Shown here: in pieces, positions 5,350 through 43,221 of the stretch
Position numbering within the stretch: position 1 is the first letter of the stretch
Layout of the letters: every line of letters starts with the position of its first letter
Assembly (NCBI RefSeq): GCF_017813355.1
Contig: NZ_JAGIYZ010000010.1
Coordinates: 1-64,000 of the forward strand
Length of the DNA: 64,000 nucleotides
Source of the DNA: Roseomonas nitratireducens
Lineage (GTDB): Bacteria > Pseudomonadota > Alphaproteobacteria > Acetobacterales > Acetobacteraceae
Direction: 5' to 3'
The notes under the pieces: generated by a model
Seen by the model: only the letters and a program-made list of their open reading frames with translations
What the model was told of the DNA's origin: nothing
Database searches by the model: none
Translations under genes and position numbers: made by a program

Positions 5350-5482
5350 GTGCCCTCAAGCGCCGGGCGGCCGGCATCCGCCGGCCTTGGCTGCGCGCCA
5401 TGCCATGGCGCACCCGGCGCGGAATACAGGTTGGGCGCGGTCGCGCTTCGCGCTCCCGGATCCCGCAGGCGCGGGATCCGCC
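5350..5482 (+). repeat. Dispersed three-hairpin repeat, single copy between dapA and smpB
   Basis: Read on the plus strand, this element starts GCCCTCAAGCGCC and holds three hairpins: 5369-5386 (GGCCGGC, loop ATCC, GCCGGCC), 5443-5453 (GCGC, TTC, GCGC) and 5457-5480 (CGGATCCCGC, AGGC, GCGGGATCCG). The order and loops match the arrays at 50159-50717 and 62213-62590, but the arm sequences differ while staying complementary. In the direction of dapA-smpB transcription it forms the smpB leader and supplies the GAGGG of the ribosome-binding site. Confidence 0.8.
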
Positions 5483-41297: not shown

Positions 41298-42278
41298 TCA
41301 CGCCTGCGCCGCGCCGCCCGTCCGGCGCGTCTTGAACAGCGAGAACACCACGCCGCCGGCGATCAGCGCCGTGGTGACGGACAGCCCGATCGCCGGGTCC
41401 AGCTTCCCGAAGATCTGGTTCCAGAAGATCTTCAGCCCGATGAAGATCAGCACGAGCGACAGCGCGTACTTCAGATAGGCGAAGCGGTGCACCATGGCGG
41501 CCAGCGCGAAGTACAGCGCGCGCAGGCCGAGGATGGCGAAGATGTTGCTCGTGTAGACGATGAACGGGTCCTGCGTGATGGCGAAGATCGCCGGCACGCT
41601 GTCCACCGCGAAGATCAGGTCGGCGATCTCCACCAGCACCAGCGCCAGCATCAGCGGCGTCAGCCACACCGACACCTTGCCGGTCGTGGGGTCCGGCAGG
41701 CGGACGAGGAACTTCTCCCCGTGCAGTTCGTTGGTCACGCGGAAGCGGCGCTTCATGAAGCGCAGCACCGGGTTGTCCTTGATGCTCGGCATGTTGTCGG
41801 CCACCACCAGCATCTTCACGCCGGTGGCCAGCAGGAAGGCGCCGAAGATCCACATCACCCAGGCGAACTGCGACACCAGCGCGGCACCCAGCCCGATCAT
41901 GATCGCGCGCAGCACGATCACGCCGAGGATGCCCCAGAACAGCACCCGGTGCTGGTAGATCGCCGGGATGGCGAAATAGGTGAAGATGAGCGAGATGACG
42001 AAGACGTTGTCGAGCGCGAGCGTCTTCTCCACCGCGAAGCCGGTGAAGTACTCCATGCCGCGCTCGGGCCCGAGTTCCCACCACACCCAGCCGCCGAAGG
42101 CCGCCGCGACGGCGATGTAGAAGGCCGACATCCACAGGGATTGAGAGACAGGGATCTCCCGCACCTTGCGGTTCAGCACGCCCAGGTCGAAGACGAGCAG
42201 CGTGATGACGATGCCGATGAAGGCCAGCCACATCCAGGCGGGCTTGCCCAGCCATTCGGCGAACAGGAACGCATCCAC
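41298..42278 (-). CDS. TerC family integral membrane protein
   Basis: The 326-residue protein has seven to nine membrane helices and the TerC signatures FIGIVITLLVFDLGVLNRK, ALDNVFVISLIFTYF (acidic residue in the membrane), GVKMLVVADN and the second acidic motif DLIFAVDSVPAIFAIT. TerC/Alx proteins export manganese or supply metal to exported enzymes. GTG 42278 is the start, nine bases after GGAGG. It is transcribed from a promoter-plus-leader module (42279-42412) that is duplicated upstream of the neighbouring membrane operon. Confidence 0.94.
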   Translation of the reverse strand: MDAFLFAEWLGKPAWMWLAFIGIVITLLVFDLGVLNRKVREIPVSQSLWMSAFYIAVAAAFGGWVWWELGPERGMEYFTGFAVEKTLALDNVFVISLIFTYFAIPAIYQHRVLFWGILGVIVLRAIMIGLGAALVSQFAWVMWIFGAFLLATGVKMLVVADNMPSIKDNPVLRFMKRRFRVTNELHGEKFLVRLPDPTTGKVSVWLTPLMLALVLVEIADLIFAVDSVPAIFAITQDPFIVYTSNIFAILGLRALYFALAAMVHRFAYLKYALSLVLIFIGLKIFWNQIFGKLDPAIGLSVTTALIAGGVVFSLFKTRRTGGAAQA

Positions 42279-42377
42279 GGGTCAGTTCCTCCAGATGCCG
42301 CGCGCGCGCGGCAGGTGAAGGATCCGACATCGCGGCGGGATGTCTCCCCGCCGCCAGAGGGGCCCGGATCCGGATGG
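42279..42377 (-). ncRNA. Structured 5' leader of terC (riboswitch-like candidate)
   Basis: Read on the minus strand, helix P1 pairs GGATCCG (42371-42365) with CGGATCC (42326-42320). It encloses the junction GGCCCCTCTG, hairpin P2 (GCGGCGGG/CCCGCCGC, loop about GAGACAT) and GATGT. P3 (TGCCGCGCG/CGCGCGGCA) follows just before GGAGG. The leader at 43102-43215 has the same helices with different paired bases and identical junctions. CCTTC at the P1 edge could pair with GGAGG, giving an on/off switch. Structure and covariation are read by eye; ligand and Rfam status are unknown. Confidence 0.6.
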
Positions 42378-42383
42378 CGCGCG

Positions 42384-42412
42384 AGATCGTTCGCCCGCGC
42401 GCCCGATTCAAG
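42384..42412 (-). promoter_or_regulatory. terC promoter, CTTGAA-N17-CGATCT
   Basis: On the minus strand CTTGAA (42412-42407) and CGATCT (42389-42384) are 17 bases apart. The architecture equals that at 43222-43250 and before hsp20 (58236-58264). It resembles sigma-32 (RpoH) promoters. The predicted start near 42377 puts leader helix P1 at about +6. Confidence 0.55.
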
Positions 42413-42421
42413 GGGTGGGGA

Positions 42422-42721
42422 TTAGCTTTCGATCGCCGACCGCGCGGCGTTCAGCACGGGGCCGCATTCCGGGGCGGCCTGGCGCAGCACCGCCTCGGGG
42501 CTCGTCGTGCCGATCCAGGCGCCGAAGGCGGTGCGCATGGCCCACCACGGTTCGGAGGAGGCGCGTTCGACCAGCGCGGGAAGTGCCGCCGTCACGCAGC
42601 CTTCCACCTGCGCGACGATCGCGGCCGGCGCGCGCGCGGCGGACAGCCGGTCCTCCAGCGTCGATTGCAGCGGCGCGACCAGGAAGGTCGCGACGAGGAA
42701 GGCGATGAGGTCGCCGATCAT
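42422..42721 (-). CDS. Small protein with N-terminal membrane segment, unknown
   Basis: This 99-residue protein starts MIGDLIAFLVATFLVAPLQS, one hydrophobic helix, and continues with a soluble helical part: LEDRLSAARAPAAIVAQVEG, CVTAALPALVERA, then ECGPVLNAARSAIES. Two cysteines may pair. I recognise no family. Its ATG overlaps the stop of the upstream membrane protein gene (ATGA), so both are made together. The terC promoter begins immediately after its stop. Confidence 0.7.
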   Translation of the reverse strand: MIGDLIAFLVATFLVAPLQSTLEDRLSAARAPAAIVAQVEGCVTAALPALVERASSEPWWAMRTAFGAWIGTTSPEAVLRQAAPECGPVLNAARSAIES

Positions 42722-43101
42722 GCCGAGGCCCCCCGCGTGTCGCGCCGCAGCGCGAGGACCAGGCCCGCCAGGGCCAGGATCGCGAGCGCGGCGGTCGCCG
42801 CGCGCGACGCGATGGCCGCCCCCGCCTGGCCGTCCAGCAGCGCCGGCACCTGCGCGAGCGCCGATCCGCCCCCGGCGAAGGCCACGGCGCAGAGCAGCGC
42901 CCCGCCCGCCGCGGCAAGGCGCGGGCGCCGCCCGGCGAAGGACAGCAGCAGCGCCGCCGCGCCGAGCCCCGCGGGGATCAGCGCCGTCCAGTGGACGGGC
43001 GGCGGCGGCAGGACATAGCCCGCCAGCCCGACGGCCAGCAGCGCGGCGCCGAAGCCGCGCAGCACGGCGGGCACGCGGGATGGTGTGATGGTGTCGCCCA
43101 T
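42718..43101 (-). CDS. Small four-helix membrane protein, unknown
   Basis: A 127-residue protein, nearly all hydrophobic, with probably four membrane helices: VLRGFGAALLAVGLAGYVLP, WTALIPAGLGAAALLLSFAG, LAAAGGALLCAVAFAGGGSA and TAALAILALAGLVLALRRD. Short loops are Pro- and Arg-rich. No family is recognised. ATG 43101 follows GAGAGGAGG. The 5' leader (43102-43215) and promoter closely match those of terC, which suggests a shared signal, perhaps metal or stress. Confidence 0.75.
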   Translation of the reverse strand: MGDTITPSRVPAVLRGFGAALLAVGLAGYVLPPPPVHWTALIPAGLGAAALLLSFAGRRPRLAAAGGALLCAVAFAGGGSALAQVPALLDGQAGAAIASRAATAALAILALAGLVLALRRDTRGASA

Positions 43102-43215
43102 GGCGAACTGCCTCCTCTCCGCCGCGGGCGCGCATGGGACGCGCCCGCCATGGTGGAGGTCCGACATCGCGCCGCGCCCGATGGGCACGCGGCGCCAGAG
43201 GGGCCCGGACCGTAG
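43102..43215 (-). ncRNA. Structured 5' leader of the small membrane protein operon (second copy)
   Basis: Minus strand: P1 pairs GGTCCG (43211-43206) with CGGACC (43163-43158). The junction GGCCCCTCTG is identical to the terC leader. P2 is GCGCCGC/GCGGCGC capped by GCCC-ATC-GGGC, followed by GATGT. P3 is GCGGGCGCG/CGCGCCCGC just before GGAGAGGAGG. Compared with the terC leader, all three helices changed sequence while keeping their pairing. CCTCC next to P1 is a perfect anti-Shine-Dalgarno candidate. Confidence 0.6.
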
Positions 43216-43221
43216 ACGCGC

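What the first reader, a model, noticed from the sequence alone, without database searches (positions are those of the whole stretch)
42279..43215. Twin riboswitch-like leaders upstream of terC and a neighbouring membrane operon
Seen: the leaders at 42279-42377 and 43102-43215 (minus strand) share helix P1, the unpaired junctions GGCCCCTCTG and GATGT, hairpin P2, and hairpin P3 directly before the Shine-Dalgarno. P1 is GGATCCG/CGGATCC in one and GGTCCG/CGGACC in the other; P2 and P3 also differ in sequence but stay paired. Changed helices with fixed junctions are what an aptamer looks like. CCTTC or CCTCC at the P1 3' edge can pair with GGAGG, so P1 and an SD-blocking helix would exclude each other. 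Known: terC/alx-type genes in other bacteria are often under manganese-sensing yybP-ykoY RNAs, but I do not see that motif. Inference: a metal- or stress-responsive RNA of possibly undescribed class.
Basis: partly seen in the sequence, partly recalled or inferred. Interest (0 to 1): 0.8.

Follow-up and report, generated by a model that had tools for sequence, protein, structure and literature searches.

The report
Twin terC RNA leaders, known family
The two matching RNA leaders belong to an already catalogued but unexplained bacterial RNA family (terC RNA); comparison with relatives suggests that in some leader types the RNA acts as a switch that hides or exposes the ribosome-binding site of membrane genes linked to metal and ion balance.

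Summary
Both leaders match Rfam RF03067 (terC RNA) well above its cut-off of 39.9 bits: 42315-42375(-) 61.0, 43152-43216(-) 58.2. A third copy in the genome precedes a second Alx-type TerC gene. P1 and P2 covary in 68 cores. My searches found no paper on what this RNA senses; the discovery paper (recalled) was not held. Added here: (1) 98 of 178 copies have a TerC match within 2.5 kb; many others precede DUF475, YjbE-type TerC, TerB, ion exchangers, Bax1-I, lipid kinases and unknown small genes. (2) In the window's terC leader the predicted fold buries the Shine-Dalgarno in a hairpin that uses the P1 3' strand; its arms show compensatory swaps in nine leaders. (3) The third copy's clade has a possible four-strand switch. 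Against: three family-wide tests of Shine-Dalgarno control failed, and folding shows no switch for leader 2 or this genome's copy 3. Best reading: translational ON-switch, signal an ion, pH or membrane stress; ligand untested.

The parts
42315..42375 (-). terC RNA (RF03067) copy 1, core: P1 42371-42364/42327-42320, junction GCCCCUCUG 42363-42355, P2 42354-42346/42340-42332, GAUG 42331-42328
   Evidence: cmscan 61.0 bits, E 3.8e-8, gathering 39.9; alignment; sequence and helices
42281..42328 (-). Expression platform of copy 1: alternative hairpin GUCGG.UCCUUCA (42328-42316), inner stem 42313-42307/42302-42296, UGGAGGA.A.CUGAC (42293-42281); holds SD GGAGG 42292-42288 and uses the P1 3' strand
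   Evidence: MFE folds; arm covariation in 9 non-redundant leaders of this type
41298..42278 (-). terC/alx-type gene, 326 aa, start GTG
   Evidence: PF03741 1e-49; TIGR03718 R_switched_Alx 390.4 bits, cut-off 246.4
43152..43216 (-). terC RNA (RF03067) copy 2, core: P1 43211-43205/43164-43158, junction 43204-43196, P2 43195-43187/43177-43169, GAUG 43168-43165
   Evidence: cmscan 58.2 bits, E 1.6e-7
43111..43159 (-). Expression platform of copy 2: anti-SD CCUCC 43159-43155 touching P1, hairpin P3 about 43149-43122, SD AGGAGG 43116-43111
   Evidence: CGGACCUCCA invariant in all 9 aligned rows (two rows look identical) while P3 varies; folding does not show a switch
42718..43101 (-). gene 1 behind copy 2: hydrophobic protein of 127 aa without a known family
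   Evidence: no Pfam or NCBIfam match above cut-off; 46 rows in the protein search, the window's own protein among them; organisms named in four rows: Roseomonas, Falsiroseomonas, an Acetobacteraceae MAG; 73-89% identical to the ORFs behind the same type of leader in L005, L006, L008
42422..42721 (-). gene 2, 99 aa, start overlaps gene 1 stop; no known family
   Evidence: homologues behind terC RNAs in L005-L008, L010, L016, L067 and, at 28-39% identity, in L041, L073, L163, L171, L178

Best explanation
Both leaders are terC RNAs (RF03067): a conserved two-helix core followed by a clade-specific expression platform. In the terC leader the outer helix P1 and a hairpin that buries the Shine-Dalgarno compete for one strand (UCGGAUCC). 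When the core is stabilised, presumably by a bound ligand, P1 wins, the hairpin loses its 5' arm and the ribosome-binding site opens: a translational ON-switch. The second leader has an anti-SD (CCUCC) against P1 and may work alike. The genes behind terC RNAs point to an ion (Mn2+, Ca2+, Na+ or H+/pH) or membrane-stress signal. Shown: family membership, P1/P2 covariation, SD-blocking arms that change together in relatives of leader 1. Partly supported: alternative helices in the clade of copy 3. Inferred: direction of switching, existence and nature of the ligand, function of leader 2.
For: RF03067 matches. Core covariation. Leader 1: P1 probability 0.001 and SD unpaired 0.00 in the free ensemble; with the core enforced SD unpaired 0.24. 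12 of 178 copies fit the ACCUG..CAYYUGG platform, 9 non-redundant; arm positions 0-5 pair in 9 of 9 (the pattern itself fixes the loop side, 0-2 largely), with swaps at position 3 (U-A 6, C-G 3) and 4 (C-G 5, U-A 3, U-G 1): SD GGGAG goes with CUCUC (3 of 3), SD GGAGG with CUUC (5 of 6). Short leaders (34, at most 62 nt): P1-3' zone pairs its own SD zone better than permuted ones, -10.06 vs -9.11 kcal/mol, p 0.008; better than shuffled tails in 200 of 200. Clade of copy 3, 16 leaders: 2:3a p 0.0008, 3a:4 0 of 5000, 3b:4 (SD) p 0.006; 3a:4a 15 cells changed on both sides against 5.0 shuffled, 0 of 500. Gene set.
Against: Family-wide, enforcing the core opens the SD no more with native than with swapped platforms (0.136 vs 0.135; 87 leaders). 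No general downstream mimic of the P1 3' strand (p 0.78, 112 leaders). Junction-SD pairing not above that of other genes' SDs (mean quantile 0.55, 88 of 90 leaders). P1-SD pairing: all 87 leaders p 0.067, 65 less redundant p 0.072, long leaders (31) p 0.75, short terC leaders alone (17) p 0.13 (17 of 200 shuffles as good). In one search some shuffles reached full pairing at positions 3 and 4. Leader 2: P1 is 0.78 likely without constraint, SD access hardly changes (0.37 to 0.43); this genome's copy 3: 0.47 to 0.48. On the 23-row alignment the two measures least prone to relatedness are not exceptional: 3a:4a pairs with two-sided change 4 vs 2.3 (32 of 500), further types 386 of 500; 3b:4b 222 and 367 of 500; 2:3a has no two-sided change. 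Permutations ignore relatedness. No ligand or expression data.
Confidence: 0.5

Rival explanations
1. Protein-bound leader: the core is a binding site for a regulatory protein that controls all these genes; no small ligand is involved.
For: The core is short (59 model positions) and stands before unrelated genes, as a shared protein site would.
Against: No single gene family follows all copies, which argues against autoregulation by a downstream product; no candidate protein was sought here.
Confidence: 0.2
2. Same family, other logic: OFF-switch, or control at the level of transcription or RNA stability.
For: Long leaders (31 of 65) show no P1-SD relation; family-wide SD tests failed; leader 2 and copy 3 show little SD change.
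Against: For leader 1 the predicted geometry sets SD burial against the core.
Confidence: 0.25
3. A new, undescribed riboswitch class.
For: No yybP-ykoY match; fixed junctions with covarying helices.
Against: RF03067 matches at 61.0 and 58.2 bits, cut-off 39.9.
Confidence: 0.02
4. The RNA senses manganese like yybP-ykoY and simply replaces it.
For: TerC-family proteins are Mn-linked (abstract starts seen); E. coli alx responds to Mn and alkaline pH (PMC9603457, passages).
Against: Both RNAs occur together in 25 of 385 genomes, 7.6 expected, and in 7 of 8 RF00080 loci fetched (of 56 matches) an AEIGDKTQLLA-type membrane gene follows (family not named by a call). Genome size and lineage may inflate the co-occurrence, and a second Mn sensor is not excluded.
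Confidence: 0.15

Closest known systems
terC RNA, Rfam RF03067
   Same: Full-length match (model 1-59) for both leaders and the third copy; copies 1 and 3 precede Alx-type terC genes
   Different: Copy 2 precedes two small unknown genes; the two window copies lie 841 bases apart; the 59-position model ends before the expression platforms described here
yybP-ykoY manganese riboswitch, RF00080 (E. coli alx, mntP)
   Same: Also linked to TerC-family genes; in E. coli responds to Mn and alkaline pH (PMC9603457, passages)
   Different: No RF00080 match in this genome; model of 177 positions against 59; the two often coexist
Four-strand attenuators and translational riboswitches (recalled)
   Same: Mutually exclusive helices, one of which hides the SD
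   Different: In part of the clade of copy 3 the competing strands read like a partial copy of the core without P2; I do not recall such a case and made no search for one

Membership tests
terC RNA RF03067 | covariance-model score above the gathering cut-off, full length | tested here: met
   61.0 and 58.2 bits, cut-off 39.9, model 1-59
terC RNA RF03067 | conserved junctions between P1 and P2 | tested here: met
   both leaders match the consensus there
terC RNA RF03067 | position in the 5' leader of a protein-coding gene | tested here: met
   starts 45 and 59 nt after the core pattern (the second start set by hand); no transcript data
yybP-ykoY RF00080 | match to the RF00080 model | tested here: not met
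   no gathering-score match in the window; 0 matches at E 0.001 in the genome (stricter filters)
riboswitch (ligand-binding mRNA) | direct binding of a ligand that changes structure | not testable with these tools
   no binding data
translational switch by SD occlusion | core and SD-blocking helix mutually exclusive and both conserved | tested here: inconclusive
   supported for the leader 1 type, mixed for the clade of copy 3, not for leader 2, not family-wide

The most novel reading that the evidence does not exclude
terC RNA is an ion- or pH-sensing translational ON-switch that governs a broad set of membrane and ion-homeostasis genes in Alphaproteobacteria and pseudomonads, and in one Roseomonas-type clade the switch was rebuilt by copying the core without its P2 hairpin, so that the copy supplies both the anti-core strand and the anti-SD strand.
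Probability: 0.3. Interest if true: 0.65.

Novelty: new member of a known kind. Interest (0 to 1): 0.4.

Why it matters
terC RNA is, to my knowledge, a catalogued RNA without a known signal. The list of genes it precedes narrows the search to ions, pH or membrane stress, and the SD-blocking arms name the mutants that would settle the mechanism. If confirmed it would be a second RNA sensor around TerC-type metal proteins that coexists with the manganese riboswitch, and it would tie two unknown small genes (gene 2 also lies beside terC in other bacteria) to that response.

Tried and rejected
New RNA class: rejected by RF03067. The seven other matches are below their cut-offs and taken as chance.

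Family-wide SD control: three tests failed, so the claim is limited to leader types. A test of whether the P1 3' strand is engaged downstream was marginal (0.675 vs 0.651, none of 20 shuffle sets as high) and the share above 0.5 was lower than in shuffles (0.78 vs 0.83; 110 leaders).

Replacement of the manganese riboswitch: the two RNAs co-occur.

Mended errors: terC start calling was off by one base and redone; numbers for terC genes are not used, but some gene-1 starts were set by hand in both. Alignment A3 had rows cut short and was replaced by A4. In A2 the L005 row ends before the SD. A tblastn of gene 1 found only the window's own copies, probably because of masking; pairwise comparison then found 73-89% identity.

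Pfam was run on 75 of 98 candidate ORFs; the 23 dropped were further candidates of the same loci, five from gene-1-type loci (four in a wrong frame), one wrong-frame candidate (L102) and contig-end pieces. The leaders called clade of copy 3 were chosen by me by eye before the tests: 24 ids gave 16 after redundancy removal (one start set by hand, L066 left out); A4 holds 23 of the 25 leaders listed (L036 and L066 left out).

Literature: 'terC motif' with riboswitch and RNA 0 papers; 'terC RNA' 114 papers, the 20 listed concern telomerase; RF03067 0 papers; seen as listings only and nothing on this RNA noticed in them. Passages: PMC9603457, PMC7717549 (DUF475 only as a predicted sRNA target); PMC11109978 has no 'terC'. 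The Weinberg 2017 paper (recalled as the discovery paper) is not held, so what it says on downstream genes is unknown to me.

Full report
What is there. A scan of the window against 4227 Rfam families gives two matches at gathering score: RF03067 'terC RNA' at 42315-42375(-), 61.0 bits, and 43152-43216(-), 58.2 bits. The genome holds a third copy at G000:C56:161932-162000(+), 56 bits, before a second Alx-type TerC gene, and no RF00080 match at E 0.001. It has four PF03741 genes: two stand behind terC RNAs; the other two were not classified.

Neighbourhood. Copy 1 stands 45 nt before the GTG start of a 326-aa Alx-type TerC protein. Copy 2 stands before two small genes without any known family. 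The order copy 2 - gene 1 - gene 2 - copy 1 - terC recurs in loci L005 and L008 of the same genus. L006, L007, L010, L016 and L067 carry gene 2 behind the same type of leader (gene 1 checked in L006), and L006, L010, L016 and L067 gave no TerC hit in the 1.5 to 2.5 kb examined downstream. Distant homologues of gene 2 (28-39% identity) lie behind a terC RNA in L073, and in L041, L163, L171 and L178 on the strand and side of a TerC gene that itself follows a terC RNA. So gene 2 belongs to this gene set beyond the genus.

Core structure. In 68 non-redundant cores P1 pairs +3, +4, +5 are 91, 79, 72% paired against 57, 63, 44% with shuffled partners; P2 pairs 2-6 are 78-99% against 40-73%. P1 +2 is often a mismatch. 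The innermost P1 pairs and the junctions were fixed by the search pattern.

Distribution. RF03067 matches 52 of 385 genomes drawn from the class at E 0.001 (51 over the cut-off) and 35 of 59 relatives at E 0.01 (31 over the cut-off), own genome included in both.

Gene set. Of 178 distinct copies 98 have a TerC match on the same strand within 2.5 kb, 85 of them within 110 nt; 27 of the 98 are from the window's genus, and four TerC loci count twice because two copies precede one gene. For the other 80, Pfam on 75 of 98 candidate ORFs gives TerC 20 (12 match DUF475; three of the rest tested are YjbE-type), TerB 7, DAGK/YegS 7, Zn_ribbon_TFIIB 7, DUF4112 6, DUF465 5, Na_Ca_ex 2, Bax1-I 2, Tim44 2 and single others. 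Not all are the first gene: a MnhE antiporter subunit (L081, +33 nt) and one exchanger (L119, +42) are close, but NhaA (L153, +345), VIT1 (L049, +646), MrpF (L081, +629) and the second exchanger (L151, +413) lie further down. This mix of metal-linked, cation-exchange and membrane proteins is the main hint to the signal. Whether the discovery paper lists the same genes I could not check.

Manganese riboswitch. RF00080 occurs in 56 of the same 385 genomes; 25 have both, 7.6 expected, Fisher p 2e-10. Genome size and lineage probably inflate this, but it speaks against simple replacement.

Leader 1 as a switch. The MFE fold pairs GUCGG and UCCUUCA with UGGAGGA and CUGAC around an inner hairpin, burying the SD and using the P1 3' strand; P1 probability is 0.001. 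With P1 and P2 enforced the SD is freed in part (0.00 to 0.24 unpaired), in a state about 7 kcal/mol less stable without any ligand or tertiary energy. Twelve of 178 copies share this platform, nine after redundancy removal, among them Microvirga, Azospirillum, an Asaia MAG and a Rhodospirillales MAG (titles). Arm positions 0-5 pair in 9 of 9, with swaps at 3 and 4 that follow the SD sequence. The pattern fixes the loop-side positions. If the SD types are permuted as a whole, full pairing has a chance of about 1 in 84 (my arithmetic from the 6:3 split), so support is modest. Among 34 short leaders of all kinds P1-3' zone and SD zone fit better than permuted (p 0.008), but not among short terC leaders alone (p 0.13), nor in all leaders together (p 0.07).

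Leader 2. CGGACCUCCA is invariant in all 9 aligned rows while P3 varies, and CCUCC faces SD GGAGG. Folding shows no switch: P1 is 0.78 likely without constraint and SD access hardly changes.

Copy 3 and its clade. Strand 2 (CGGAUCGCG, P1 3' strand) can pair with strand 3a (CGCGCGAUCCG), and 3a with 4a (CGGAUCGCG) just before the SD; 3b (an echo of the junction, such as CCCUCUUUGGC) can pair with GCCAGAGAGG, which holds the SD. In L013, L015 and L022 strands 3 and 4 read like the core without P2. In 16 non-redundant leaders native partners beat permuted ones: 2:3a p 0.0008, 3a:4 0 of 5000, 3b:4 p 0.006. On the 23-row alignment 3a:4a has 15 cells changed on both sides (5.0 shuffled, 0 of 500), with A-U 12 and G-C 9 at one pair, and 3b:4b has 12 (6.5 shuffled, 4 of 500); but the counts of pairs and of pair types, which suffer least from relatedness, are not exceptional (32 and 386 of 500; 222 and 367 of 500), and 2:3a varies only through G-U and mismatches. 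Reading: with the core, 3a:4a forms and the SD is free; without it, 2:3a and 3b:4b form and the SD is hidden. In this genome's own copy 3a:4 is interrupted and enforcing the core leaves SD access unchanged (0.47 to 0.48), so for that copy the model is weak.

Family-wide tests were negative: native versus swapped platforms 0.136 vs 0.135; downstream mimic of the P1 3' strand p 0.78; junction-SD pairing no excess; long leaders nothing. The expression platform is therefore clade-specific at best, and for many leaders unknown.

Verdict. A known RNA family of unknown signal; two new members; a plausible and partly supported mechanism for one leader type; an unusual four-strand variant in the clade of the third copy. 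After checking, confidence in the best explanation was lowered from 0.55 to 0.50, because the copy 3 fold and the robust covariation counts speak less clearly than first written.

Noticed in passing
G000:C56:161932-162000(+), locus L003 1500-1643; relatives L013, L015, L022: Third terC RNA of the genome; some leaders of its clade carry a partial echo of the core without P2 between core and SD.
   Followed up: yes
L041 3459-3749, L163 470-198, L171 2631-2897, L178 2601-2867; L073 4268-3999: Distant homologues of gene 2 (28-39% identity) near TerC genes that follow a terC RNA, and in L073 right behind a terC RNA: an unknown small protein linked to terC.
   Followed up: partly
L172 about 1510-1705; G073:C2:1489503-1489712; G161:C157:2785-3024; G162:C9:125403-125616: Pairs of terC RNAs on opposite strands close together (in L172 a TerC match on one side, a DUF4112 ORF on the other).
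   Followed up: no
L134, cores starting at 5350 and 5699: Two terC RNA cores in tandem on one strand about 350 nt apart before one TerC-like gene.
   Followed up: no
L175 (G297:C1:1011761-1011853): Unusually long P2 region; the core pattern spans 75 nt.
   Followed up: no
385 genomes of the class: terC RNA and the manganese riboswitch RF00080 co-occur more than expected, 25 against 7.6.
   Followed up: partly
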